Assembly (NCBI RefSeq): GCF_041261445.1
Contig: NZ_JBGCCU010000025.1
Span: forward strand, 62,001-126,000
Direction of reading: 5' to 3'
Source of the DNA: Catenulispora sp. EB89
Lineage (GTDB): Bacteria > Actinomycetota > Actinomycetes > Streptomycetales > Catenulisporaceae
Length of the DNA stretch: 64,000 bases
Made by a program: the position numbers and the translations under genes. The notes beneath the pieces are model-generated. The model was not told the DNA's origin. It did not search any database and was given only the letters and a program-made list of their open reading frames with translations. Positions 89-48,090 of this stretch are shown in pieces; positions within the stretch are counted from its first letter, which is position 1; the number at the start of each line of letters is the position of its first letter.

Positions 89-1895
<1,807 letters not shown>

Positions 1896-6219: not shown

Positions 6220-7477
6220 TGACTCCGCCTACGGCGGACGCCGCAGGCTTCTCCCGCCGTCGGGCTTTCACCGACTCGGGAAGGACCAGCCCGGCCCTGA
6301 TCGCGATGTTGAGCGCGCCGACGCGATCGGCGTGATCGGCATGGCCACATTCGAGGCACAAGAACCTCTCTGCCTCACGGTTCTCCGCTGCCACGTGACC
6401 ACAGTCGGGGAGCGGGCATGTGCGGGAACTGTTACGAGGGTTCACGGGAATGACTTCACGACCGGCGCTTTCAGCCTTGTCCGCGAGGATGCCCAGGAAC
6501 ACCCCCCAACCCGCGTCCAAGATGCTGTGATTGAGACGAGCCTTCGCGCTGCTGCCGTTGGGCAGGAACGTACCTGGTTGGCCGAGATCGGGCTTCGGCT
6601 TCGGGGCACGCGTCATGCCCGCGATGTTCAAATGTTCGTGGGCGATGCGGTCGTAGTTTCGGACCAGGTCATGCGCGGTCTTGTGGGCGTGGTCGAGCCG
6701 CTGGCGGCTGATCTTGCGGTGGAGCTTCGCGACCTATGCGACCGCGCGGCGGTGTGCTGCAGTGCGGTCGTCGGGTTTGACTTTGCCGAATGCCTTGAGT
6801 GCCCGCTGAGAGTCTGCGAGGTCCTCTGCGCTCTGCTTGCCATGGCGCGGGTTCGGAACGTGTCGGCCGGCATGGGTGGTCAGGAAGTGTGTGACTCCCA
6901 TGTCGATCCCGACGACGAGGCCGGTGCCCGGAAGCGGTTCAGCGGGTACGTCGTCACAGGACAGGATGACGTACCAGCGGTTGCCTTCGCGCTTGACGCC
7001 GATCGTCTTGACTCGCCCCTTGACCGGCCGGTGTCGATGTACTCGGATGTGGCCGACGCCTTGCAGGCGGACGCGCGTCACCTTGTCGTCCGGCGTGGGG
7101 TCCCAACGGCACCCGCCGCCGTCTTTGGGGAACTCGACGGTGTCGAACCTGCTCAGGCTCCGGAAACGCGGGTAGCCGGGCCTTTCGCCTGCCTTCGCCC
7201 GACGGAAGAACGCGGAGAATGCTCTGTCCAAGCGGCGAAGAGTGGCTTGCTGGGATGAGAACGACCAGCGAGCCTGATCGGCGTCGTTGGCACGGATGGC
7301 CTTGAGCTGTGCGGACTGGTCGCCGTAATCGACAGTGGTCTTGGAGATGTGCCGCCAGGCATCACGGCGTTCCTGCAGAGCAGCGTTGTACAGCACGCAG
7401 TGGTCGTGCAGCATCGCTTTCAACGCGATCTCTTGGCGGGCGGTCGGACGAAGCACGAACTTGAATGCGCGTCTCAT
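6170..7477 (-). pseudogene. tnpB: TnpB-type RNA-guided nuclease gene interrupted by one in-frame amber codon
   Basis: Reading from ATG 7477, one frame encodes an IS200/IS605 OrfB (TnpB) protein down to 6172, broken only by TAG at 6734-6736. The two flanking open segments are in the same frame, so this is a nonsense mutation and not a frameshift. All RuvC-like parts survive on either side: GIDMGVTHFLTT (first Asp), the HEHLNIAGM segment with a Glu, a zinc-finger module (CPLPDCG then CLECG) and HADRVGALNI (last Asp). No tnpA is nearby. A guide RNA could still be made from its 3' end. Sequencing error or stop readthrough are alternatives to true decay. Confidence 0.85.
6224..6238. terminator. 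Perfect hairpin at the deoA/tnpB junction
   Basis: TCCGCC and GGCGGA flank the loop TAC, five bases after the deoA stop. The hairpin lies inside the 3' end of the disrupted tnpB, where the omega-RNA scaffold and right end of such elements usually lie. It could terminate deoA transcription, belong to the TnpB guide RNA, or both. No T-run follows. Confidence 0.45.
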
Positions 7478-35774: not shown

Positions 35775-36884
35775 TCAGCGGCCGCGGCGTATTCGGCGGC
35801 GGTCGCGGGAGGCCGCGGAGCCGTCGGCAGCCGCCTCCTCGACTCGGATGAGGTGCCGCGTGGTGGCGGCGACCGGGCGCTGGATGCCCTCGTGCTTGGC
35901 CTCGTACTGCGCGGCGTCCGCGAGCCGGAAGAGGGTGTCCCGGCTGGCGACCGTGCCGGCCGGGCCGTCGGTGGCGGCGTAGCCGACCGCGGCCCCGGAG
36001 ATGCCCTCCAGCTTGGCGGCGCGGCCGGCCAGGTCCTCGGCCAGCTGGGTCACCGTCGACCAGGGCTGGCCGACCACCAGGACGCAGAACTCGTCGCCGC
36101 CTATGCGGGCCGCCAGGGCGCCGTTGACGGTGCCGGCGACCGCCGAGAGGTGCCCGGCCAGCTGCTCCAGGACGGCGTCCCCGGTGTCGTGGCCGGAGGT
36201 GTCGTTGACCTGCTTGAGGCCGTTCACGTCGCAGATGATCAGGGCCACCGGCAGCCCGGTGAGGCGGTGCAGCTCCATCGCCTCGTCCAGGCCGACCTCG
36301 ATGGCCCGCCGGTTGGCCAGGCCGGTCAGCTCGTCGGTGTAGGCCAGCCGCTCCAGGTACTCCTGCCGGTCGGCCTGCGCCAGGCCGGCGCTGACCAGGG
36401 CCGCGAGCGTGGCGGCGAAGTCCAGGTCGGCGTCGGTGTAGGGCTCCTGGTCGGCGGTGCGGGCCGCGTAGAGCTCGCCCCAGACCTGCCCGGCGAAGAA
36501 GATCGGCGAGATCAGCGCGCTGTGGCGCTCGCGGAGTCGCAGCGAGGCGGTGCGCCGGGGGTCGGCGTCGGCGTCGTCGCTGCGCAGGGTCCACGGCCGC
36601 GGGTACTCCTCGCTGACGATGCGCGGGAAGTCCGACGGCGCGTACCACTCCTCCTCCGGGAACCGCTCCTCGAACGGCAGCAGCTCCCCGTGGTTGATCA
36701 GCACGCGCAGCTGGCCGGTGGCGCGCACGTACTCCGACAGCGACACGACCCGCGCGTCCAGCGCCTTGCGGGACTCCTCGGCGACGACGGTGATGACCTC
36801 GCTGAACCCGTGGACCCGCGCCAGGGCGCGGGCCAGGTCGGTGAGCGCACGCAGGCGGATCGAGGCTTGATCTGTATTAGACAT
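35775..36884 (-). CDS. GAF-GGDEF diguanylate cyclase
   Basis: This 369-aa protein has a GAF-like sensor (about residues 15-170) and a GGDEF domain (about 175-350). The active-site motif is intact as GGDEF at 262-266, with the preceding DELTGLANR and DVNGLKQVND segments. It should make c-di-GMP. The RxxD inhibitory site expected five residues upstream reads VNGA, so product feedback at that site is unlikely. In Streptomyces c-di-GMP acts on BldD to block development. From memory, the synteny points to the SCO4931-type cyclase. Confidence 0.92.
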   Translation of the reverse strand: MSNTDQASIRLRALTDLARALARVHGFSEVITVVAEESRKALDARVVSLSEYVRATGQLRVLINHGELLPFEERFPEEEWYAPSDFPRIVSEEYPRPWTLRSDDADADPRRTASLRLRERHSALISPIFFAGQVWGELYAARTADQEPYTDADLDFAATLAALVSAGLAQADRQEYLERLAYTDELTGLANRRAIEVGLDEAMELHRLTGLPVALIICDVNGLKQVNDTSGHDTGDAVLEQLAGHLSAVAGTVNGALAARIGGDEFCVLVVGQPWSTVTQLAEDLAGRAAKLEGISGAAVGYAATDGPAGTVASRDTLFRLADAAQYEAKHEGIQRPVAATTRHLIRVEEAAADGSAASRDRRRIRRGR

Positions 36885-37008
36885 GGCCGCGTTGTCCGCC
36901 GTACGAAATCACGGGACCACGCTAGGTGATGTCCTCCGGCTGTGCCACTTCACCCGTCCGGGCGATGGTCCACGAGATCGACGCCCGGTGTCGGTACCGT
37001 GGCCCGAC

Positions 37009-37197
37009 GTGACCGGAGCCCAGCACCCCACCTCCTCGGCCGGCGACGGCCTGGCCGCCGCCCGCGCCCGGGCCGCCGAGTTGGGCGTGTCCGTGTCCGA
37101 ATACGTGCGCGACCAGCTGCGCCGCACGCGCGGCGAGGAGGCGTGGGAGCGGGCCTTGGCGCAGGCGGGGGAGGCGGCTCCGCCTAAGCGGGAGTAG
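37009..37197 (+). CDS. Small FitA/RHH-antitoxin-like protein
   Basis: This 62-residue product starts at GTG 37009. It has ARARAAELGVSVSEYVRDQL, the pattern of helix-turn-helix or ribbon-helix-helix FitA-like antitoxins. No toxin gene with a PIN or RelE pattern follows, so it may be a solitary regulator. TACCGT lies eight bases before the GTG, which would suit leaderless transcription, and no ribosome site is visible. Upstream in-frame starts reach back to 36883 but overlap the start of the divergent GGDEF gene. Confidence 0.55.
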   Translation: MTGAQHPTSSAGDGLAAARARAAELGVSVSEYVRDQLRRTRGEEAWERALAQAGEAAPPKRE

Positions 37198-37258
37198 CGA
37201 GCGGGTACCTGCGCGCCTCGGCTCAGCTCTGTTGCGCCCGGCTCAGCTCCGGCTCAGC

Positions 37259-38173
37259 TCAGCTCTGCGCCAGCCGCGTCCGCGGTCCGGCCCGCAGCAC
37301 CTGCGAGGGCAGCGTCCGGCCGACGGCGCGCTCGGCGTAGGCCGCCGTGTCCAGCAGCGCGTCCAGGTCCACGCCGGTGTCGATGCCCATGTCCTCGACC
37401 ATGTGCACCAGCTCCTCGGTGGCGATGTTGCCGGAGGCGCCGGGGGCGTAGGGGCAGCCGCCGAGGCCGCCGACCGAGGCGTCGAAGTCGGTGACGCCGA
37501 GCTGCAGCGCGGCCAGGACGTTCGCCAGGCCGGTGCCGCGGGTGTTGTGGAAGTGCAGGTTCAGCGGCTTGTCCGCGTGTGCCGAGCGGGTCTCGCCGAT
37601 CAGCCGGGTGACACGGGTCGGGGTGGCCATGCCGGTGGTGTCGCCGAAGGACAGGGAGTCGGCGCCGTGCGCGACCGCCGTGTCGACCACCCAGAGCACG
37701 CGCTCGGTGGGGACCTCGCCCTCGTACGGGCAGCCCCAGGCGGTGGAGACGATGACCTGGACCGTGGCGCCCCGGCCGTGCGCCAGGTCCATGATCGCGG
37801 CGATGTCGTCGAGGGATTCGGCGGTGCTGCGGTTCAGGTTCTTCTTGTTGTGCGTGTCCGAGGCGGAGACGACCACTTCGATCTCGTTGAAGCCGGCGTC
37901 CAGGGCCCGCTCGGCGCCCTTGAGGTTCGGCACCAGCGCCGAGTAGCGGATACCGTCGGCCCGGGTCATCTGCGCGGCGACCTCGGCGGCGTCGGCCATC
38001 TGCGGGATCGCGCGGGGGTGCACGAACGACACCGCCTCGATGCGGGAGACGCCGGTGTGGGAGAGCCGGTCGATCAGTTCGATCTTGGTTTCGGTGGAGA
38101 CCGGGTCCTCGTTCTGCAGGCCGTCGCGCGGCCCCACTTCCCGGAGCGACAACGCTGTCGGCATATCGGTCAT
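37259..38173 (-). CDS. Hydroxymethylglutaryl-CoA lyase
   Basis: This 304-aa TIM-barrel enzyme cleaves HMG-CoA into acetoacetate and acetyl-CoA, the last step of leucine breakdown. It has REVGPRDGLQNE at the N-terminus, the metal motif HFHNTRGTG and the active-site cysteine loop SVGGLGGCPYAPGASGN. It lies downstream of the cyclase gene on the same strand, near the acyl-CoA carboxylase genes, which fits branched-chain acyl-CoA metabolism. Confidence 0.94.
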   Translation of the reverse strand: MTDMPTALSLREVGPRDGLQNEDPVSTETKIELIDRLSHTGVSRIEAVSFVHPRAIPQMADAAEVAAQMTRADGIRYSALVPNLKGAERALDAGFNEIEVVVSASDTHNKKNLNRSTAESLDDIAAIMDLAHGRGATVQVIVSTAWGCPYEGEVPTERVLWVVDTAVAHGADSLSFGDTTGMATPTRVTRLIGETRSAHADKPLNLHFHNTRGTGLANVLAALQLGVTDFDASVGGLGGCPYAPGASGNIATEELVHMVEDMGIDTGVDLDALLDTAAYAERAVGRTLPSQVLRAGPRTRLAQS

Positions 38174-38268
38174 GCATATGACGCTAGCAGCGGTGTCTCA
38201 AAGTCTGGAATGTGAGGGCTGTCACCTTGGGGCGACCGGCTTGCGCTGAGCTGGCACTCAGCTGGCGC

Positions 38269-39576
38269 TCAGCCCCCGGTCAGCGCCGTCAGCGCGATCT
38301 CGCCGAGCCCGCGCACCATCCGCGTCCCGACCGGCTCCAGCGCGAACGAGGCGTCGTCGGCCAGCGCGTCGGCCAGCTCCGGGTCCACCACGATCTGGTC
38401 CGGCTCGGCCAGCGACGTCAGCCGTGCCGCCAGGTTGACCGTGGTCCCGTAGATGTCGCCGTTGCGCTGCACGACGTGCCCGTACGCCACGCCGATCCGC
38501 AGCTCGGGCACCGCCTCGGTGCGCCGCATCGAGGCCAGCAGGTCCAGCGCGATCCGCGCGGCCCGGGCCGGGGAGTCGGCGGCGAACATGATCTCGTCGC
38601 CCAGGGTCTTGATCAGCCGGCCGCCGCCGTAGGCCACGGTGTCGGCGGCGTTGGCCTCGAACACCGACACCAGCCGGGCCAGCTCCTCCTCGGTCAGCTG
38701 GCGCGAGAGCCGGGTGAAGGAGACCAGGTCGGCGAACCCGACGGCCTGCAGGCCCTCGGCGTGCTCCTGGAGCTGCTGCCGGACCCGGCCGGCGGCCGCG
38801 GCGAGCTGCCGGCGCCAGACGTAGACCAGCAGCTCCTCCAGCTCCGGCAGGACCCGGCGGCCGATCCGGTAGCCGAACTCGGCCATCTCCTCCGAGCCCA
38901 CGCCGGCCGTGTCGAAGGCATCGAACAGCACGTCGACCTGCCATTCGGCGAGCCGCGCCGTGGTCTGTCCCATGGAGCGCGCGACCTGGACCGCGAAGTC
39001 CTCGGTGAACAGCCCGCTGCGCGGCATGCCGCCGAGCCGGAGCAGGGCGTCGACGTCGGCGTCGGTGAAGGCGCGGGCCTGGCCGACGTCGGCGAAGCCC
39101 ATCGCGCGCCAGTAGCGGCGGGCCTCGTCGTAGGGGATGCCCGCGGCTTTGCAGACCTCGTAGGCGGTGTGCCGGGGGACGCCGCCGAGCAGGAGGGCTT
39201 CGAGCTCGTCGCCGTTGGCGGCCTTGCGCTTGGCGGCGCTGGAGGTGCCGGGGGTGGCGGGAGTGCCGGAGGCGCCGTTGGCTCCGCCGGCGGTGCCGTT
39301 CCGGGCGACTCCGGAGCCGCTGGCGGCGCCGGGACCGGCCACGCCGCCGATACCGCCGACGCCTCCGATGCCGCCCACGCCGGCGGCGCTGGCGGCGCCT
39401 CCGACGGCGCGGGAGCCGGAGGTCCGGGCAGCCCCGGCCGAGTCAGCCGAGTCAGCCGAGTCGGCCGAGCCAGCCGAATTGGCTGACCCAGCCGGCTCGC
39501 CCTCGGCCCGGCGCGCCCGGCCGCCGTTCTTCCCGGCCGCGTCGTGGCCACCGTCCCCCGGCACCCTGCGCGCCAT
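38269..39576 (-). CDS. cya: Class III adenylate cyclase
   Basis: This 435-aa protein has an Ala/Gly/Ser low-complexity N-terminus (to about residue 110), a helical regulatory domain and a C-terminal catalytic domain. The domain keeps the metal-binding aspartates in VSFADLVSF-like sequence and in KTLGDEIMF, and the DIYGTTVNLAARL segment with the transition-state Asn/Arg. It has no membrane helices. From memory the position matches Streptomyces cya (SCO4928), which makes cAMP for germination and development. Confidence 0.9.
   Translation of the reverse strand: MARRVPGDGGHDAAGKNGGRARRAEGEPAGSANSAGSADSADSADSAGAARTSGSRAVGGAASAAGVGGIGGVGGIGGVAGPGAASGSGVARNGTAGGANGASGTPATPGTSSAAKRKAANGDELEALLLGGVPRHTAYEVCKAAGIPYDEARRYWRAMGFADVGQARAFTDADVDALLRLGGMPRSGLFTEDFAVQVARSMGQTTARLAEWQVDVLFDAFDTAGVGSEEMAEFGYRIGRRVLPELEELLVYVWRRQLAAAAGRVRQQLQEHAEGLQAVGFADLVSFTRLSRQLTEEELARLVSVFEANAADTVAYGGGRLIKTLGDEIMFAADSPARAARIALDLLASMRRTEAVPELRIGVAYGHVVQRNGDIYGTTVNLAARLTSLAEPDQIVVDPELADALADDASFALEPVGTRMVRGLGEIALTALTGG
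39437..39490 (-). repeat. 9-bp tandem repeats in the cyclase N-terminal coding region
   Basis: The unit GCCGAGTCA (plus strand) is repeated about six times with increasing divergence. It encodes the Ser-Ala-Asp/Asn repeats in the disordered N-terminus of the cyclase. Copy number may vary between strains without shifting the frame. Confidence 0.8.
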
Positions 39577-39630
39577 CGTGTTCCGCAGCTCCTGCCCTGG
39601 TCGCCGTCGAATCGCCTGCGTCTGCTACTT

Positions 39631-40173
39631 CTACTTCTTCTTGCCGTGCTGCTCTTCGGGCTCGGCCAGCGCGGCCGTCCCGTCGGTGCCGACGTTGCTG
39701 ATCAGGTTGGTCAGCTCACGCTGCGTGGACTCCACGTGCGGGATGTCCTCCAGCTGCTCCTGGCCGTGCTCGCCGGCCGACTCCACCACCAGCGTGCCAC
39801 AGCCCAGGATGCGGTCCAGCAGGCCGTTGTGCTTGAACGACACGTCGTTGATCTTCACCAGGGGCATGTCGCGGCCCTCGCGGTGGATGAAGCCCTCGCG
39901 GATGATCAGACGCTTGTTCGTGACGATGTAGTTCTTGTTCAGCCAGATGACCCAGGGCCGGACCGTGAACACGATGATGTCGATCAGCGCCAGCGCGCCG
40001 ACCCCGATCGCTGCGACCTTCTGCGTGCTGCCGCTGGTCAGCCCGGCCGCGGCGCCGAACACGGCGACCGCGACGACCAGGTTCAGCACCGGGAGGATCA
40101 GCGCCTTCCAGTGCGGACGCAGCGCGAGGTCGATCTGCTCGCCGGGCGCCAGAAGGTGCTTGGGGTAACCCAT
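39631..40173 (-). CDS. PH-domain (YdbS-like bPH2) membrane protein
   Basis: This 180-aa protein starts at ATG 40173, with a GTG nine bases upstream as an alternative. Two membrane helices (about residues 23-45 and 50-72) precede a cytoplasmic PH-like domain (NKNYIVTNKRLIIREGF, with the characteristic K/R-L-I strand) and a Gly/Lys tail. Function is unknown; such proteins probably respond to membrane state. It lies between birA and cya. Confidence 0.85.
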   Translation of the reverse strand: MGYPKHLLAPGEQIDLALRPHWKALILPVLNLVVAVAVFGAAAGLTSGSTQKVAAIGVGALALIDIIVFTVRPWVIWLNKNYIVTNKRLIIREGFIHREGRDMPLVKINDVSFKHNGLLDRILGCGTLVVESAGEHGQEQLEDIPHVESTQRELTNLISNVGTDGTAALAEPEEQHGKKK

Positions 40174-40295
40174 TGCCGTCACTACTCCCTCAACTCCGCG
40201 CCTCCCCCCTGTGAGGAAGCGAAGGTGTCCTGTCGCCACGCATACTTGCAGACAATAGGAGCGCTTGGCAGTTACTTGCCGGTGACAGGGTCTTG

Positions 40296-41219
40296 TCACC
40301 TGAGATGAACGACATCCCCGGCCCCGAACGCGCGCTCCCCGTCGGCGTTCCGCACCAGCAGCCGGCCGTCGCCGTCGAGCCCCACAGCCTCCCCGACCAC
40401 GGGCTCCCCGCCGGGCAGCTCCACCCGCACCCGCCGCCCGAAAGTCGCGCACGAAGCGGCGTAGGCGGAGAGCAGCCCCGAGGCCATCGGGTCGCCCCCG
40501 GTGACGCTCCAGTCCGTGTACCAGCGCTCGAGCTCGCGCAGGATCGCGCGCAGCAGCGTGTCGCGATCGGCGGCCTTGGCGTTCTCCAGCAGCAGCGAGG
40601 TCGCGTGCGGCGCCGGCAGCTCATCGCGGCGCAACGAGACGTTGAGGCCGAGCCCCACGACCGCGGCCGCGCCACCCGGAGTCTCGACGCGCTCGACGAG
40701 GATGCCGCCGAGCTTTCGGGCGGCGCCGTAGGCGGTGTCCTTACTACTGTCGGTTTCATTGGGGGCGTCGGATCCATCGGGACCATCGTCGTCATCCACC
40801 ACGATCAGATCGTTCGGCCACTTCAACCGCACCGGAACATCACTGACCGCGTCCACAGCCGTCCGCACCGCGGTCCCAGCCAGCAACGGCAACCACCCCC
40901 ACCGCGTCGGAGGCACATCATCCGGCCGGAGCAACACCGACAGGAACAACCCCGACCGCGCCGGCGCCGTCCACGTCCGCCCCAACCGCCCCCGCCCGGC
41001 ACTCTGCGCCTCGGCGACGAGGACGTACCCCTCCGCCTTCCCAGCCCGCGCCGCCTCGGCCACGTCCGCGTTGGTGGACCCGGTCTCCCGCACCACTTCG
41101 ACGCGCCTCCACAGGCCGCCGGGGCGGACGACCGCCTTGTTCACTGCCAGCTCGCGCAGGGGTGGGCGGTCCAAATCATCGTAAGGCGATTGACGTCCGT
41201 CATCCTCTGCGCCGGTCAT
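40296..41219 (-). CDS. birA: Biotin-[acyl-CoA carboxylase] ligase
   Basis: The 307-aa protein activates biotin to biotinyl-AMP and transfers it to the AMKM lysine of carboxylase subunits such as AccA2. It has the ETGSTN segment, the biotinyl-AMP loop GRGRLGRTW, KWPNDL, KLGGILVE and VGLGLNV. No N-terminal DNA-binding domain is present, so it is the monofunctional type. Its ATG overlaps the stop of an inserted tnpB (ATGA), an odd junction: birA translation may now depend partly on tnpB. Confidence 0.94.
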   Translation of the reverse strand: MTGAEDDGRQSPYDDLDRPPLRELAVNKAVVRPGGLWRRVEVVRETGSTNADVAEAARAGKAEGYVLVAEAQSAGRGRLGRTWTAPARSGLFLSVLLRPDDVPPTRWGWLPLLAGTAVRTAVDAVSDVPVRLKWPNDLIVVDDDDGPDGSDAPNETDSSKDTAYGAARKLGGILVERVETPGGAAAVVGLGLNVSLRRDELPAPHATSLLLENAKAADRDTLLRAILRELERWYTDWSVTGGDPMASGLLSAYAASCATFGRRVRVELPGGEPVVGEAVGLDGDGRLLVRNADGERAFGAGDVVHLR

Positions 41220-42421
41220 GTCAGAACTCCTTCGCTTCGGTCGGTTCCTGCTTCATCGACGGCTGCCGGAACGCGTTCCGGTCTTACGCCCTCTCCACAG
41301 GCGTTTAGCCTCTCCCGGCGTCCCAGGGCGAGGATGTTGCGGGCAGCGTTCACATCACGATCATGACGCATTCCGCACGACGGGCAGTCCCATTCGCGGA
41401 TACGGAGCGTTATGCGCTCGACGCGAGTGCCACAGCACGAGCAGGTCTTCGTGGTCGGTGCGAACCGGTCGATCTTGGTGAACTCACGGCCGTACAACGC
41501 TGCCTTGTACTCCAGCATGTCCACGAACTGGGTCCAGCCGGCGTCATGGATCGATTTCGCCAGCCTGGTCCGCCCGAGAGCCGCCACGGCCAAGTCCTCC
41601 ACGAACACCGCTTGGTTTTCGCGGATGACGCGGGTGGACTCTTGGTGATGCCAGTCGCGGCGCCTGTCGGCGACCTTTGCGTGCTGTCGCGCCAGCTTCA
41701 GTCTGGCCTTCTGCCGGTTCGCAGAGCCTTTCTCCTTACGAGACAACTCTCGGTGTAGGCGTTTGAGCTTTCGCTGTGCCCGCCGGAGGAACCGCGGAGT
41801 CGCGATCTTGTCTCCGGCAGATGTCACGCCGAAATGGGTGAGGCCCAGGTCGATGCCACATTCGACGTCGGTACGGGGCAACGGTTGTTCCGCGACCTCG
41901 ACCACGAACGACGCCCAGTAGCGATGGGCCGCATCGCGCACGACCGTCACAGATGATGGCTCGGCGGGTAGCTTCCTTGACCAAACGACCTCGATGTTGC
42001 CAACTTTGGCGACGTAGAGCTTGCCATTGTTCCGAATGGTGAAGCCGTTCGACGTCAGCCGAATTGCCTGTCGTGCGTCACGTTTGGACTTGAAGCGCGG
42101 AAGGCCGACCGCCGGTCCGCGCCGCTCGGCCCGCCCTGACGCGAAATACGCTCGGTATGCGCAGTTCAGGTCGCGGAGCGACTGGACCAAGACGACTGAT
42201 GACACCTCAGACAGCCAGGCTCTTTCCGGTGTCCGCTTAGCCAGCGTGGTCACGCGCTTCTGGAGCTCACCGTCGTCGATGAACCCCTGCCCCGCCGCGA
42301 ACGCCTCCTGTCGCAGCCGTAGGCCGTCGTTGTACACGACCCGCGCACACCCGAATGCCCGGGCAAGCGCATCGCGCTGCAGGGCGTCCGGATACAGGCG
42401 GTACCTGTAGCGCAACAACAT
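41216..42421 (-). CDS. tnpB: TnpB-type RNA-guided nuclease (IS200/IS605 OrfB), intact
   Basis: This 401-aa protein starts at ATG 42421 ([11 protein letters not shown]). It retains every RuvC-like element: [13 protein letters not shown] (Asp), [12 protein letters not shown] (Glu), [11 protein letters not shown] (Asp) and a four-cysteine zinc finger (CSCCG, CPSCG). No tnpA accompanies it. The gene is less GC-rich than its neighbours. Its guide-RNA scaffold is expected to overlap its 3' end, next to birA. It belongs to a subgroup different from the disrupted TnpB at 6-7.5 kb. It separates birA from the promoter region it may once have shared with pccB. Confidence 0.92.
41266..41281. repeat. Perfect 16-bp palindrome in the 3' end of the intact tnpB
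   Basis: CCGGAACGCGTTCCGG reads identically on both strands. It lies 48-65 bp before the tnpB stop, and the nearby GAAGCAGGAACC stretch is a sequence I associate with right ends of actinobacterial OrfB elements. It is likely a stem of the omega (guide) RNA scaffold or part of the right end. Confidence 0.55.
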
Positions 42422-42570
42422 GTGACCGATGTTATGGATGTCCGGCGCGCCCGCGCCGAACACACGCGCGACGACAACCCGAACGAGTGATCGACTACCG
42501 ACTCGCAGGCGACCCGTGCGTGTGGACAGAATCACGGTCCGCCGCCCAAGGCATCGTGCCTGATACGCAT

Positions 42571-42576
42571 TACAGT
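42571..42576 (+). promoter_or_regulatory. Candidate minus-10 element for leaderless pccB
   Basis: TACAGT ends six bases before GTG 42583, and no ribosome binding site is visible. This is the geometry of leaderless transcripts common in actinobacteria. The tnpB insertion at 42.4 kb lies just upstream and could have changed the minus-35 region. Confidence 0.35.
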
Positions 42577-42582
42577 GACCAC

Positions 42583-44175
42583 GTGACCGACGCCGAAGCC
42601 CCCTCAAACGACGCACCCCACACCACGGCGGGCAAGCTCGCGGAACTCCGATCCCGCCTCGACACGGCGATCCACGCCGGCAACGAGCGTGCGGTGGAGA
42701 AGCAGCACGCCAAGGGGAGGATGACGGCCCGCGAGCGGATCGAGTATCTGCTCGACGACGGCTCCTTCATGGAACTGGACGAGCTGGCGGTGCACCGCTC
42801 GGCGCGCTTCGGGATGGAGCGGAACCGGCCGTACACCGATGGTGTGGTCACCGGGTTCGGGACCGTGGACGGCCGGCAGGTGTGCGTGTTCTCGCAGGAC
42901 GTCACGCTCTTCGGCGGGGCGCTCGGCGAGGTCTACGGCGAGAAGATCGTCAAGGTGCTGGACCTGGCGCTCAAGCTCGGGTGCCCGATCGTGGGGATCA
43001 ATGAGGGCGGCGGCGCGCGGATCCAGGAGGGTGTCGTCTCGCTCGGGCTCTACGGCGAGATCTTCCGGCGCAATGTGCTGGCCTCCGGTGTCATCCCGCA
43101 GATCTCGCTGATCATGGGTGCGGCGGCCGGCGGGCACGTCTACTCCCCGGCGCTGACCGACTTCGTGGTGATGGTCGACCAGACCTCGCAGATGTTCATC
43201 ACCGGCCCCGACGTCATCAAGACCGTCACCGGCGAGGACGTCTCGATGGAGGACCTCGGCGGTGCCCGGACGCACAACACCAAGTCCGGCAACGCGCACT
43301 ACATGGGCGCCGACGAGAAGGACGCCATCGACTACGTCAAGGGCCTGCTGTCCTTCCTGCCGAGCAACAACCTCGAGGACGCCCCCGAGTACGACGTCGC
43401 CGCCGACCTGGAGATCACGGCCGAGGACCGGGAGTTGGACACGCTGGTGCCGGACTCGGCGAACCAGCCCTACGACATCCACCGGGTCATCGAGCACGTG
43501 CTGGACGACGCCGACTTCCTGGAAGTCCAGTCCCTGTTCGCGCCGAACATCGTCGTCGGCTTCGGCCGGGTCGAGGGCCGTACCGTCGGCATCGTCGCCA
43601 ACCAGCCGATGCAGCTGGCCGGCTGCCTGGACATCGACGCCTCCGAGAAGGCCGCGCGCTTCGTCCGCACCTGCGACGCCTTCAACGTCCCGGTCCTCAC
43701 CTTCGTCGACGTCCCGGGCTTCCTCCCGGGCACCGACCAGGAGTGGAACGGCATCATCCGCCGCGGCGCGAAGCTGATCTACGCCTACGCCGAGGCCACG
43801 GTGCCGCTGCTGACCATCATCACCCGCAAGGCCTTCGGCGGCGCCTACGACGTCATGGGCAGCAAGCACCTCGGCGCCGACCTGAACGTCGCCTGGCCCA
43901 CCGCGCAGATCGCGGTGATGGGCGCGCAGGGCGCGGTGAACATCCTGTACCGCAAGGAGCTGGCGGCGGCCGAGGACCCCGCCGCCGAGCGTGCGCGGCT
44001 CATCCAGGAGTACGAGGACGAGCTCCTGAACCCCTACGACGCGGCCGAGCGCGGCTACGTCGACTCGGTGATCGAGCCGTCGCAGACCCGCACCTACGTG
44101 GTCAAGGCGTTGCGCGCACTGCGTTCCAAGCGCGAGACGCTGCCGCCGAAGAAGCACGGGAACATCCCGCTGTGA
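42583..44175 (+). CDS. pccB: Propionyl-CoA carboxylase carboxyltransferase beta subunit
   Basis: The 530-aa beta subunit transfers carboxyl from biotin on AccA2 to propionyl-CoA. It has two crotonase-like halves with the glycine-rich oxyanion segments [20 protein letters not shown] and (C-terminal) [21 protein letters not shown] and [17 protein letters not shown] 42583 is the start. Its stop overlaps the start of the epsilon subunit. It supplies methylmalonyl-CoA for fatty acid and polyketide synthesis. Confidence 0.95.
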
Positions 44176-44432
44176 GCGGCGCGGAGCAGGGTGGCGGAGT
44201 GCGGGCCGTACCCGAAGTCAAAGTCCTGCACGGCAATCCCACGGCCGAGGAAGTCGCCGTGGTGGTCGCCGTCGTCGCCGCGGCCGTCGCCGGTGCGGCG
44301 TCACGATCGAGTAACGACGGCAGCGGAGCCCGTCCGCGCAGCGGTTGGATGGCGCGGGAGCGGAACGTGCGCGCGCCGTTGCACCCCGGTCCCGGCGGAT
44401 GGCGCGCCTCGGCGTTCCCTCAAGCACGCTGA
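44172..44432 (+). CDS. pccE: Acyl-CoA carboxylase epsilon subunit
   Basis: This 86-aa protein starts at GTG 44172, overlapping the pccB stop (GTGA). It has the hallmark [19 protein letters not shown] helix and a C-terminal [10 protein letters not shown] segment of actinobacterial AccE/PccE subunits. These bind the carboxyltransferase and stimulate the complex. The intervening stretch is short and low in conservation. Confidence 0.9.
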
Positions 44433-44531
44433 GTGAGACGTCTGGCATCCCTGCGGCATACACCCCAGGGAGTAGTCGGGGAAGATCACGTCATCTGTAG
44501 GGGGATTCCCAGATTCCGCCTTAAGTCTCAT

Positions 44532-44549
44532 CCGGTCCGTCGGGACCGG
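44532..44549. terminator. Hairpin after pccB-pccE
   Basis: CCGGTCC and GGACCGG form a 7-bp stem with a GTCG loop, about 100 bp beyond the pccE stop and just before a promoter for the lipoprotein gene. It is a modest terminator candidate. Confidence 0.4.
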
Positions 44550-44558
44550 CGAGTACAG

Positions 44559-44587
44559 TTGACAGTGTTAGAAGAAAAGTTGTAGCT
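44559..44587 (+). promoter_or_regulatory. Promoter of the lipoprotein gene
   Basis: TTGACA at 44559-44564 and GTAGCT at 44582-44587 are separated by 17 bp, close to the vegetative SigA (HrdB) consensus. A GGGG-rich ribosome site and ATG 44612 follow. Confidence 0.6.
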
Positions 44588-44611
44588 CCGCAAAGTGGGG
44601 GGTACCCAGCA

Positions 44612-45733
44612 ATGCCAACGACGACGTCCATATCCACAAAGCGCCGCTCGATCCGCGCGCTGACGATGACGATCGCTGTCGGCGCCGTCGCCGGGCTCTC
44701 GCTGTCCGCGTGCTCCTCCTCGGGGAGCACCGACAGCGCGAATACCACCGGCAAGACGCCCACTGAGGCGCTGGCTGCCGCGGTGCACAACATCTCCAAC
44801 GGCAACGCCGAGTCCTTCCAGCTCTCGCTGAAGCCGGACGACGCGATGATCGCGGCCCTGAACAAGGACAGCAGCGACCCGCAGTCCGCGGCGATCGCCA
44901 AGAGCCTGTTCGGCAACGGCGGCATCGTCGTGAAGTTCACGGCCAGCTCCGACAAGCCGCTGAAGGACCTCAAGACCGGCGAGAGCCCGAACGTCGAGTT
45001 CGACCTGACCGCCGGCGGCACCGACCTGGTCGACGTGCGCAGCGTGGGCGGGGCGCTGTACGCGAAGCTCAACGTGCCGCAGTTCCTGCAGCTGTCCGGC
45101 AAGTCCGCGTCCTCGCTGAACAGCCAGCTCGGCCAGGTGCCGCCGGACTTCCAGGCGCCGCTGCAGGCCCTGATGGCCGGCAAGTGGATCGGCGTCAGCG
45201 CCTCGGACCTGAAGGGTCTGGAGCAGATGCTGCAGAGCTTCGGCGGGAGTGCCGGCGACCTCGGCTCCACGCCGACCTCCTCCTCCAGCGGCCCCGGCTC
45301 CCAGATGCTGTCCGGCCTGGAGACCGCGCTGATGAAGGCCCTGACCCAGGACGCCAACGTCACCGACAAGGGCAGCGGCCACTACGCGGTCAGCGGCAAG
45401 GTCAAGGTCATCGGCCAGGACGTGCTGCAGGCGATCGGCCCGGTGCTGAACACCGTGCCCGGCAAGTCGAAGACCGACATCGACAAGCTGCGCGAGGGCC
45501 TGAACAACGTGCCGGACAGTGAGAACGTCACGTTCGACATCTGGGTCAAGAGCGGGCAGATCAGCGAGCTGCAGGTGGACCTCGCGCAGTTCCTGCCGGC
45601 GGCCAAGACCGGCGGCGGCCACCTGCCGGTGGACGCGAAGTTCACGCAGAGCGCGAGCAGCGTCAGCGCGCCGAGCGACGTGACGAACGTCGACGTGCAG
45701 AAGCTGCTGTCCTCGTTCGGCAGCGGCCTGTAA
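44612..45733 (+). CDS. LppX/LprG-like lipoprotein
   Basis: The 373-aa product has a lipoprotein signal (LSLSAC lipobox, Cys at about residue 34), then a Ser/Thr linker and a repeated alpha/beta body. Segments such as VEFDLTAGGTDLVDVRSVGGALYAK and HYAVSGKVKVIG are similar to LppX_LprAFG-type lipid-carrier folds. It is probably an extracytoplasmic binding or transport lipoprotein. No operon partner lies within 100 bp; a hairpin follows. Confidence 0.75.
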   Translation: MPTTTSISTKRRSIRALTMTIAVGAVAGLSLSACSSSGSTDSANTTGKTPTEALAAAVHNISNGNAESFQLSLKPDDAMIAALNKDSSDPQSAAIAKSLFGNGGIVVKFTASSDKPLKDLKTGESPNVEFDLTAGGTDLVDVRSVGGALYAKLNVPQFLQLSGKSASSLNSQLGQVPPDFQAPLQALMAGKWIGVSASDLKGLEQMLQSFGGSAGDLGSTPTSSSSGPGSQMLSGLETALMKALTQDANVTDKGSGHYAVSGKVKVIGQDVLQAIGPVLNTVPGKSKTDIDKLREGLNNVPDSENVTFDIWVKSGQISELQVDLAQFLPAAKTGGGHLPVDAKFTQSASSVSAPSDVTNVDVQKLLSSFGSGL

Positions 45734-45773
45734 GTCTGGGCGGTTTGTTGCGTAGGCCGGCCTGAGCAAGCAT

Positions 45774-45809
45774 CGACGGCGGGGAGTCCTGACGGGCTCC
45801 CCGCCGTCG
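45774..45809. terminator. 13-bp hairpin between the lipoprotein and maf genes
   Basis: CGACGGCGGGGAG pairs with CTCCCCGCCGTCG around a 10-base loop, with T-rich sequence on the plus-strand side. It lies between convergent genes and should act in both directions. Confidence 0.85.
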
Positions 45810-45821
45810 TGTCGTCTCATT

Positions 45822-46460
45822 TCATTCCGCCGCGGCGTCGGCGCTCCAGTAAGCGGTGTAGTTCAGCCCCAGATCGGCCATCAGCTTGCGCAGCAACGGC
45901 TTCGACAGCCCGATCACGTTCGAGTGGTCGCCCTCGATCCGGTCCACGAAGGCGCCGCCGAGCCCGTCGATGGTGAACGCCCCGGCCACCCGCTCCGGTT
46001 CGCCGGTGGCGACGTAGGCCATGATCTCCTCGTCGCTGGGCTCCCCGAAGTGCACGACGGTCGCGGCGACCTCGCCGGTCTCCTTGCCGGTCGCGCGGTC
46101 GACCAGCCAGTGCCCGGTGAGCAGGACGCCGGAGCGGCCGCGCATCGCGTACCAGCGGGCCACCGCCTCCTCCGGGGTGTCCGGCTTGCCGAGCGGACGG
46201 CCCTCGAACTCCAGGACCGAGTCGCAGCCGACGACCAGGGCGCCGTCGGTCTCCGGGAGCGCGGCGACGGCGCGGGTCTTGGCCTGGGCCAGCGCGAGGG
46301 CGACCGCGCGGGGGGTGGCGTCCGGGCCGAGGGCTTCCTCGACGGCGTCCTCGTCCACGCCGCTGACCAGGACGCGGGGATCGAAGCCGGCGTTGCGCAG
46401 CAGCGTCAGCCGGGCGGGGGAGGCGGAGGCCAGGACGATCGGAGGCGGGGTTGTGGACAT
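45822..46460 (-). CDS. maf: Maf-like nucleotide pyrophosphatase
   Basis: This 212-aa protein belongs to the Maf/Ham1-related house-cleaning pyrophosphatases that hydrolyse non-canonical or modified NTPs. It has the N-terminal [17 protein letters not shown] loop, the [18 protein letters not shown] segment and [12 protein letters not shown]. Older names call it a septum formation inhibitor. It follows the membrane-protein gene on the same strand by 44 bp. Confidence 0.9.
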
Positions 46461-46504
46461 GCCCCGACTCTAACCGGGCCGCCGGGAACAGCTCCGGGGC
46501 GCCG

Positions 46505-46999
46505 TCAGGCGGTGGTCGGCGCGCCGTTGCCGGGCCGCGGGCCGGGGCTGCTGCCACCGGCCGGCGGTGCGGGCTCGACCGGGCCGGGCTCGGGCTTGGG
46601 CGCGGCCGGCGTCACCATCGCCACCGCGAGCGCGCCGGCCAGCAGCAGGAACACGCCGCCGAGGATGAACAGCTGGGTCCAGCCGGTCAGGCCGGTGACG
46701 ACTATCGTCACGAACAGCTGCAGCGCCGCTATGGCCATCATCAGGCCCTGCATGAAGTTGTTCAGCACCATGCCGAACGCGGACAGGACCAGGACGATCG
46801 CGCCCAGCATCAGCGCCGCGAACAGTCCCAGGTTCAGGCCGATGGCCACCAGCTTGAGCAGGCCGGGCCCGGCCGGGCCGAACTTCACGCCGTTGCCGAA
46901 GGAGACGAAGCCGTAGAAGCCGGCGGCCACGATCAGCGTCCCCAGCGCCTCGGCGGCCAGCGCCAAGGCTCCGGCGAGGATCAGTATCTTGCGTCCCAC
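46505..46999 (-). CDS. Small four-helix membrane protein
   Basis: From GTG 46999, preceded by GGGAG eight bases upstream, this encodes about 164 aa with four hydrophobic helices and a Pro/Ala-rich C-terminus (PAAPKPEPGPVEP). A longer reading from 47116 has no good ribosome site. No family motif is recognisable. It precedes maf and is probably cotranscribed with it. Confidence 0.65.
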   Translation of the reverse strand: MGRKILILAGALALAAEALGTLIVAAGFYGFVSFGNGVKFGPAGPGLLKLVAIGLNLGLFAALMLGAIVLVLSAFGMVLNNFMQGLMMAIAALQLFVTIVVTGLTGWTQLFILGGVFLLLAGALAVAMVTPAAPKPEPGPVEPAPPAGGSSPGPRPGNGAPTTA

Positions 47000-47178
47000 G
47001 GCTGCGGCTCCCGATCCCGATGACGGAGTATTGGACGGTTCGTTGAAAACTACTCGCCGGTAGCGGTCGGTACAAGAGGGTTGATGACTCCCGATCGGGT
47101 GAAACGCCGGTCGCACTTAAGGCGGCACGCGGACCAAACACCGGAAAACGGACGGTGGCGGACCTAGGATCTTGCGGC

Positions 47179-48090
47179 GTGAAGGCACCGGACCGACGTA
47201 CCGCGCTGCGGGCGGGATTGGCCGTGTTGGGCTCGGCCGCGTCGGCGGGCCTGGCGGCGTGCTCGGACGGGAAGGGCGCCGGGGCGGCCGGACCGGCCGC
47301 GGACGCCGCGCGCGGGTCGGGCGGCTCGAGCGGCTCGACCGGCGTGACCGGCTCGACCAGCACCACCGGCTCGGCTGGCACGGTCGGCTCGGCCACAGGC
47401 ACCGGCGCCAGCGGCTCGTCCGGCGCGGCCCAGCCCGGAGCCACCGCCGGGAGCTCCGCGTCCCCGGCCTCCCCCTCCAGCCGGACCCAGGCCCTCGCCG
47501 AGGTCGACCACGCCGCGTCCGGCCGTCCGCAGGTCGCCCTGACCTTCCACGGCGACGGCGACCCCCAGCTGGCCCAGGCCCTGCTCAAGGAGGCCGAGGC
47601 CGGCCAGGCCCGGCTCACCGTGCTGGCCGTCGGCCGCTGGCTCGGCGCGCATCCGGAGATGGCCCGGCGGGTCCTGGACGGCGGCCACGAGCTGGGCAAC
47701 CACACCGAGAACCACGTCGACGTCTCGCGGCTGTCGCCGGCCGCGGCCTTCGCAGAGATCGAGCAGTGCGCCGCGCGCCTGCAGAAGCTGACCGGCTCGC
47801 CGGGCATCTGGTTCCGGCCTTCACAGACCCAGCACGCCAACCCCATGCTGATCGAGCAGGCGCGCAAGGCCGGCTATCGCACGGTGCTGTCCTACGACGT
47901 GGACCCGCTGGACTACGAGGACCCCTCGGCCGCGCAGATCACCGAGCGGCTGCTGGCGGCGGTGCACCCGGGAGCCGTGGTGTCGATGCACCTGGGGCAC
48001 CAGCACACGGTGGCGGCACTGCCGGCCGTGCTCGCCGGGCTGAAGTCCCGCGGCCTGGCCGCCGTCACCGCATCGGAGCTGTTCTCGTGA
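47179..48090 (+). CDS. Tat-exported lipoprotein with NodB-like polysaccharide-deacetylase fold (variant active site)
   Basis: This 303-aa protein starts at GTG 47179 (AGGA nine bases upstream). It has a twin-arginine signal (DRRTALRAGLAVLG) and lipobox LAACS, then a Gly/Ser/Thr linker. The NodB barrel follows, but the usual TFDDGP is TFHGDGDP, so a catalytic aspartate position is His. The HTENH metal pair remains. Activity is uncertain; TFHG-type variants occur in actinobacteria as far as I recall. Its stop overlaps the start of the propeller gene. Confidence 0.8.
   Translation: MKAPDRRTALRAGLAVLGSAASAGLAACSDGKGAGAAGPAADAARGSGGSSGSTGVTGSTSTTGSAGTVGSATGTGASGSSGAAQPGATAGSSASPASPSSRTQALAEVDHAASGRPQVALTFHGDGDPQLAQALLKEAEAGQARLTVLAVGRWLGAHPEMARRVLDGGHELGNHTENHVDVSRLSPAAAFAEIEQCAARLQKLTGSPGIWFRPSQTQHANPMLIEQARKAGYRTVLSYDVDPLDYEDPSAAQITERLLAAVHPGAVVSMHLGHQHTVAALPAVLAGLKSRGLAAVTASELFS

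What the first reader, a model, noticed from the sequence alone, without database searches (positions are those of the whole stretch)
41214..42421. Intact TnpB whose stop codon overlaps the start of birA
The tnpB TGA and birA ATG share bases (ATGA). TnpB proteins process their own transcripts into omega RNA at the 3' end, with the guide being the flanking sequence. Here that flank is the essential birA gene. Expression of birA may therefore be coupled to, and perhaps cut by, TnpB RNA processing, and the guide would match the birA 5' end.
Basis: partly seen in the sequence, partly recalled or inferred. Interest (0 to 1): 0.6.

Follow-up and report, generated by a model that had tools for sequence, protein, structure and literature searches.

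The report
Transposon end became birA's start
A small transposon carrying the RNA-guided nuclease gene tnpB landed a few codons inside the biotin-ligase gene birA of a soil actinobacterium, and its right end, which also encodes the nuclease's guide-RNA scaffold, now supplies birA with its start codon and first ten amino acids.

Summary
The overlap is real: tnpB (42421-41216, minus strand) ends in a TGA that shares ATGA with the birA start. But the transposon does not end there. Six empty birA alleles from the same genus and a covariance model built from 13 related right ends place the right end at 41190, 30 bases inside the annotated birA ORF. The birA start codon, a Shine-Dalgarno-like AAGGAG and the first ten codons ([10 protein letters not shown]) are therefore transposon sequence, inside the omega-RNA scaffold. 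All four occupied alleles found keep this arrangement; the six empty ones start four codons before the junction. The scaffold lost its two right-most stems, so the guide RNA may be impaired. Yet TnpB keeps its catalytic motifs and shows purifying selection between two species (dN/dS 0.165, CI 0.109-0.236), with no Y1 transposase detected in ten genus genomes. Two species hold broken tnpB; a sister of one of them is empty. This resembles the homing-endonuclease cycle. RNA processing, cutting and effects on birA expression are untested.

The parts
41216..42421 (-). tnpB, 401 aa, RuvC-type nuclease of IS200/IS605-family elements
   Evidence: ORF; Pfam; ISDra2 TnpB 8bf8 E 1.9e-66; dN/dS 0.165 between G000 and G001, the latter Catenulispora rubra
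40296..41219 (-). birA (biotin-protein ligase); codons 1-10 are transposon-derived, codons from 41189 onward are ancestral
   Evidence: Pfam BPL domains; comparison with six empty alleles
41190..42530 (-). whole transposon insertion, 1341 bp; right end at 41190 well supported, left end at 42530 only inferred (first base after a TGAT in the diverged left flank)
   Evidence: Empty sites; coordinates printed
41190..41311 (-). omega-RNA scaffold region (3' end of tnpB plus right end); core kept with one non-standard pair in stem 1, right-most stems 3 and 4 missing
   Evidence: Covariance model R1 of 13 related right ends, 18 of 33 pairs with a two-sided change in at least one sequence; match and alignment
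41190..41219 (-). transposon-derived birA start codon and first ten codons ([10 protein letters not shown])
   Evidence: Only in-frame ATG, GTG or TTG between the upstream in-frame stop and TCGCCTTAC
41225..41234 (-). Shine-Dalgarno-like CGAAGGAGTT in the right end (AAGGAG here and in G001; AAGGGA in G009 and G004)
   Evidence: Read from sequence
41170..41189 (-). predicted guide: TCGCCTTACGATGATTTGGA, birA codon 11 onward
   Evidence: First bases after the right end; GTGAY plus these 20 bases has no other match within 3 mismatches in the own genome
42422..42434 (-). candidate -10 element TAACAT (42434-42429) and a 7-base spacer before the tnpB ATG (leaderless tnpB proposed)
   Evidence: Read from sequence; TAACAT in G000, G001 and G009, TAGCAT in G004; not a tool prediction

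Best explanation
This is a TnpB-only element of the IS200/IS605 family that inserted after a TGAC motif, four codons into birA, in an ancestor within the genus Catenulispora. SHOWN by comparison: the right-end boundary; that birA now starts inside the right end; that the terminal scaffold stems are gone where birA gained an open frame and a Shine-Dalgarno-like site; that tnpB is constrained between two species and broken in two others; that a sister species of a broken one is empty. INFERRED: tnpB and birA are co-transcribed from a promoter in the left end; the transcript carries a guide copied from birA; TnpB with that guide cuts (or once cut) birA alleles that lack the element, which favours the occupied allele during recombination (homing-like retention) until tnpB decays. 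Once birA depended on the right end, it could hardly be lost except by replacement with an empty allele, which is my reading of G007.
For: Six of ten genus genomes are empty and four occupied, all four with the same junction. A separate insertion of the nearest relative (L035 in G006, before a kinase-like gene) ends at the equivalent place, and its empty sites in three genomes also read TGAC at the junction; five of six empty birA alleles read GTGAC, one GTGAA. The scaffold model matches the four occupied loci and none of the three empty loci given to it. dN/dS of tnpB, G000 against G001: 0.165, CI 0.109-0.236; birA 0.15. Synonymous change is 0.039 in the last 31 codons, which overlap the scaffold, against 0.296 in the rest (permutation p 0.0006). 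No Y1 transposase detected in G000-G009 (the control rang in 5 of 14 known genomes). Tree of accD plus birA: G007 (empty) is sister of G009 (occupied) at 99/99, and a clade of the four occupied genomes is rejected, AU p 9.4e-5. The grouping G000 plus G001 is favoured at 9 of 24 informative sites in the left end and tnpB 5' half against 87 of 110 elsewhere, p 1.2e-4, which suggests recombination between occupied alleles (the split was chosen after seeing the pattern).
Against: Stems 3 and 4 of the scaffold are gone in all four occupied loci, so the guide RNA may not work. The G000 guide differs from the empty alleles of the other species within positions 10-12 in 6 of 6 cases (only at position 10 for G005) and the G001 guide in 5 of 6; in ISDra2 double mismatches at positions 1-12 abolish cutting (PMC10097598, passage). 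So cutting between species looks weak today; within a species it cannot be tested here. The low synonymous rate in the overlap is weaker against the nearer codons from 200 on: p 0.059, 0.052 and 0.019 at three cut points. The birA-only FastTree joins G009 with G004 (0.851), leaving G007 outside that pair, and the position of G002 and G008 is unresolved. The left flank of occupied alleles is strongly diverged from the empty ones, so the left end is inferred. No RNA or cleavage data exist.
Confidence: 0.72

Rival explanations
1. The element is a dying insertion. The right end persists only because birA needs a start codon; TnpB has no current function and the guide RNA is dead.
For: Two of four occupied genomes have tnpB broken in different ways: deletions and a nonsense codon in G004, deletions and an inversion of about 70 bp in G009. 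Stems 3 and 4 are lost in all four. No Y1 transposase detected in ten genus genomes.
Against: The stem loss is shared by all four, so it most simply predates the split of G000 and G001, yet tnpB shows dN/dS 0.165 (upper bound 0.236) between those two and keeps its catalytic motifs.
Confidence: 0.3
2. TnpB has become a regulator of birA: it binds the scaffold, which is the birA leader, hides the ribosome site and so tunes biotin-ligase levels.
For: Start codon and Shine-Dalgarno-like site lie inside the scaffold, so TnpB binding and initiation would compete; the TnpB protein is constrained although the scaffold is shortened.
Against: Two occupied species have broken tnpB and still carry birA, so such regulation is dispensable. 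The RuvC motifs are kept, unlike nuclease-dead TldR (recalled).
Confidence: 0.15
3. The right end stops at the tnpB stop codon and the overlap is an ordinary operon junction, with no transposon sequence in birA.
For: Four-base overlaps are common in bacteria (general knowledge).
Against: Empty alleles and the family right end (ending GTCAA) both place the end at 41190; birA N-termini of occupied and empty alleles differ up to that point and agree after it.
Confidence: 0.02

Closest known systems
IS200/IS605-family TnpB and its omega-RNA/reRNA (ISDra2 of Deinococcus radiodurans)
   Same: Protein homology over nearly the whole length (residues 6-382) with RuvC motifs and zinc finger; scaffold overlapping the tnpB 3' end, ending at the right end, with the flank as guide (PMC8612924 passages; PMC10097598 passages).
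   Different: Stems 3 and 4 are absent, the right end codes for the first ten residues of a host protein, no Y1 transposase detected in the genome, and the target motif is TGAC rather than TTGAT.
Homing endonucleases of introns and inteins (homing cycle)
   Same: Constrained, broken and empty states in related species; a conserved gene as host; a nuclease predicted to cut the empty allele (abstract of PMC1654191).
   Different: RNA-guided; not self-splicing, but tolerated because its end supplies a start codon; cutting not shown here.
[quoted passage not shown]
   Same: TnpB cutting element-free copies of its insertion site to bias inheritance (passages seen).
   Different: Shown on plasmids; here a chromosomal gene and only evolutionary evidence.
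TldR, TnpB-derived RNA-guided transcription factors
   Same: A TnpB relative tied to a host gene (start of the abstract of PMC13418256 in a search listing).
   Different: The window TnpB keeps its RuvC motifs (that TldR lacks them is recalled); no repression shown.

Membership tests
IS200/IS605-family TnpB | OrfB_IS605 and Cas12f1-like TNB domains above the Pfam cut-off | tested here: met
   91.7 and 91.1 bits against cut-offs 30.5 and 26.3
IS200/IS605-family TnpB | RuvC motifs with D, E, D and zinc finger | tested here: met
   GIDLG, VEDL, DRDVNAA, CSCC, CPSC, aligned with ISDra2 TnpB
IS200/IS605-family TnpB | Family right end, insertion 3' of a fixed motif, no target duplication | tested here: met
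   GGACGTCAA end; TGAC at the junction of empty sites for birA (5 of 6) and L035 (3 of 3); absence of a duplication read from the alignment, left end uncertain
IS200/IS605-family TnpB | Y1 transposase in the element or genome | tested here: not met
   No PF01797 match in G000-G009. Isolated tnpB genes belong to the family (PMC8612924 passage), so membership is not excluded
Functional omega-RNA (ISDra2-like) | Stem 1 and the pseudoknot strands kept | tested here: met
   Model alignment: one non-standard stem-1 pair in the window and in G001. The pseudoknot is outside the model and was read by eye; its GAC is GCC in G009, as in the related L050
Functional omega-RNA (ISDra2-like) | Stems 3 and 4 present | tested here: not met
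   Missing in the alignments of all four occupied loci. Scores are 64-81 bits against 91-142 for L035-L051, but the more distant L052, L053 and L058 score 71, 67 and 43, so the score alone proves nothing
Functional omega-RNA (ISDra2-like) | RNA-guided cutting of the empty site | not testable with these tools
   Needs biochemistry
Homing-endonuclease-like cycle | Intact, broken and empty states in close relatives, discordant with the species tree | tested here: met
   the tree rests on two linked genes
Homing-endonuclease-like cycle | Nuclease-driven spread | not testable with these tools
   Only purifying selection and a recombination signal were seen
TldR | Loss of the nuclease active site (recalled) | tested here: not met
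   Motifs present

The most novel reading that the evidence does not exclude
A guide-RNA scaffold has been turned into the translation-initiation region of a conserved biotin-ligase gene while its nuclease stayed under selection, so that TnpB and the ribosome compete for one RNA and the gene is held hostage: any allele without the element is a target, and loss of the right end removes the birA start codon.
Probability: 0.25. Interest if true: 0.78.

Novelty: new variant of a known kind. Interest (0 to 1): 0.55.

Why it matters
It gives a natural series (empty, intact, broken, empty again) for a chromosomal TnpB insertion in genomes where no Y1 transposase was detected, and so a way to test whether TnpB survives by homing-like retention. 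It also shows how an insertion in a conserved gene can become hard to reverse: the guide-RNA end is rewritten into coding sequence. If the shortened scaffold still works, it would show which omega-RNA stems are dispensable.

Tried and rejected
Rfam found nothing at 36000-48000 at gathering thresholds, so a scaffold model was built from relatives. The promoter and terminator scan found no sigma-70-like promoter and two overlapping terminator-like sites on the plus strand, near chance. An ordinary operon overlap and a nuclease-dead TldR were rejected (see rivals and membership). That G007 lost the element by transposase excision is less likely: no Y1 transposase was detected, and G007 has the left-flank sequence shared by other empty alleles that the occupied ones have lost; replacement by an empty allele, or independent gain in other lineages, fits better. 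The one genome-contig scan gave one close relative, Catenulispora rubra, and five distant ones. The left end could not be fixed by comparison with L035, whose left flank belongs to another gene. No structure prediction was run. Paper searches: TnpB with Catenulispora, 0 papers; TnpB with birA, 2 papers seen as a listing, neither titled on this; TnpB, start codon, downstream gene, purifying selection, 15 of 172 seen as a listing. In what was seen there was no such case, but most listed papers were not opened.

Full report
Observation. tnpB occupies 42421..41216 on the minus strand and its TGA shares ATGA with the birA ATG at 41219-41217. Pfam and a comparison with solved ISDra2 TnpB confirm both identities and the RuvC motifs and zinc finger. 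The window lies in an 11.9 Mb genome. The closest named relative is Catenulispora rubra DSM 44948, whose contig has the length of G001:C179, 66727 bases. That G004 is Catenulispora acidiphila is recalled from its genome size and comes from no call.

Where the element ends. Of the ten genus genomes held (G000-G009), each with one birA match, four hold the element before birA: G000, G001, G009 and G004. Six are empty: G002, G003, G005, G006, G007 and G008. In empty alleles birA starts ATG or GTG, then three codons, then TCGCCTTAC. In occupied alleles TCGCCTTAC is preceded by GGACGTCAA, like the end of related right ends. A model from 13 related right ends, in which 18 of 33 pairs show a two-sided change in at least one sequence, matches the window at 41311-41190 with 70.3 bits and the other three occupied loci with 72.0, 63.9 and 81.1 bits. 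In the three empty loci given (G007, G006, G008) it finds nothing; the only other hit up to E 10 is window 290-369 at 12.1 bits, E 0.28. L035-L051, 13 of which built it, score 90.7-142.4 bits; the more distant L052, L053 and L058 score 70.6, 66.5 and 42.7. The nearest relative, L035, has empty sites in G003, G004 and G005 that also read TGAC at the junction. So the right end is 41190 and the guide starts at 41189.

What it did to birA. In all ten alleles there is one in-frame ATG, GTG or TTG between the upstream in-frame stop and TCGCCTTAC. It lies inside the right end, 10 or 11 codons before TCGCCTTAC, in the four occupied alleles, and four codons before it in the six empty ones. G009 has three more bases here than the others, which keeps the frame. 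The occupied alleles carry AAGGAG or AAGGGA before the start. The tnpB frame runs open through its last 49 codons to the overlapping stop in all four, ATGA or GTGA, even where tnpB is broken upstream. Compared with L035 and L051, the 5' strand of stem 3 is changed and stem 4 is deleted. In ISDra2, stems 2 and 3a contact the RuvC domain and stem 4 the WED domain, while removal of stem 3b raised activity (PMC10097598, passages). One related locus with an open tnpB frame, L039, also has a much shortened stem 4.

Expression. In all six empty alleles TAGCCT lies six bases before the birA start, which I read as a leaderless promoter. In occupied alleles this is degraded, and TAACAT or TAGCAT lies seven bases before the tnpB start. 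These promoters are my reading; the scan found no sigma-70-like one.

Selection and history. tnpB of G000 and G001: dS 0.343, dN 0.057, ratio 0.165, bootstrap 0.109-0.236; birA ratio 0.15. The last 31 codons, overlapping the scaffold, have synonymous change 0.039 against 0.296 upstream (p 0.0006), but against codons from 200 on the three cut points give p 0.059, 0.052 and 0.019, so this part is weak. G004 has larger internal deletions and a nonsense codon; G009 has several deletions and an inversion of about 70 bp. The tree of accD and birA, with the first 30 codon columns of birA removed, puts the empty G007 next to G009 (99/99), with G004 beside them (94/96), and rejects a clade of the four occupied genomes (AU p 9.4e-5); how G000 plus G001, G002 plus G008 and this group join is unresolved. 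Earlier FastTrees agreed for accD (G007 with G009, 0.998) but birA alone joined G009 with G004 (0.851). Informative sites favour the grouping G000 plus G001 in 87 of 110 cases elsewhere and in 9 of 24 in the left end and tnpB 5' half (p 1.2e-4, regions chosen after seeing the pattern), so occupied alleles have probably recombined. No Y1 transposase was detected in any of the ten genus genomes; several are drafts, and G003 and G006 are 81 and 77 percent complete.

Mechanism. The most likely course is insertion after TGAC at birA codon 4; rescue of birA by a start codon and ribosome site in the right end, at the cost of two scaffold stems; retention of the allele, perhaps because TnpB cut empty alleles; then decay in some lineages, and an empty allele back in G007. 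The G000 guide mismatches the six empty alleles within positions 10-12 in 6 of 6 cases and the G001 guide in 5 of 6, whereas that of G009, whose tnpB is broken, matches the empty allele of its sister G007 at positions 1-14. The own genome has no further target within three mismatches and no second scaffold by DNA search. TnpB trims the 5' but not the 3' side of its RNA in vitro (PMC10278001, passages), so processing would leave the birA start on the product. Whether this happens is untested.

Assessment. The anatomy is strong; TnpB function is inferred. In the searches named I saw no report of a TnpB right end serving as a gene start; they are far from exhaustive.

Noticed in passing
window 6587-7468, minus strand: A second, distant tnpB (27 percent identity) with an in-frame TAG lies in the same window.
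   Followed up: no
L072 and L073 (G024, G026, order relatives): tnpB remnants also lie between birA and accD, on the opposite strand to birA, in two of the 46 order-level relatives; seen in a match list that was cut, so not a count.
   Followed up: partly
right-end flanks of L035-L053 and L058: In a rough ORF scan of 20 related copies, seven have a convergent reading frame that stops at the TGA formed by the right-end TCA, and four (L035, L038, L039, L042) have a same-strand start within about 40 bases; L036 is unclear. Gene calls are mechanical.
   Followed up: partly
L035 (G006): The nearest relative of this tnpB sits 13 bases before the start of a kinase-like gene (name from reading the translation), another insertion at a gene start.
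   Followed up: partly
window 41822-42530: The tnpB 5' part is far more diverged between G000 and G001 (dS 0.61 in codons 1-150) than birA (0.19) or accD (0.12), and lacks species-tree signal, as if exchanged between alleles.
   Followed up: partly
L064 (G009): The broken tnpB contains an inverted segment of about 70 bp.
   Followed up: yes
L064 and L066 (G009, G004): Although tnpB is broken upstream, its last 49 codons stay open in frame up to the overlap with birA; chance or translation coupling.
   Followed up: no
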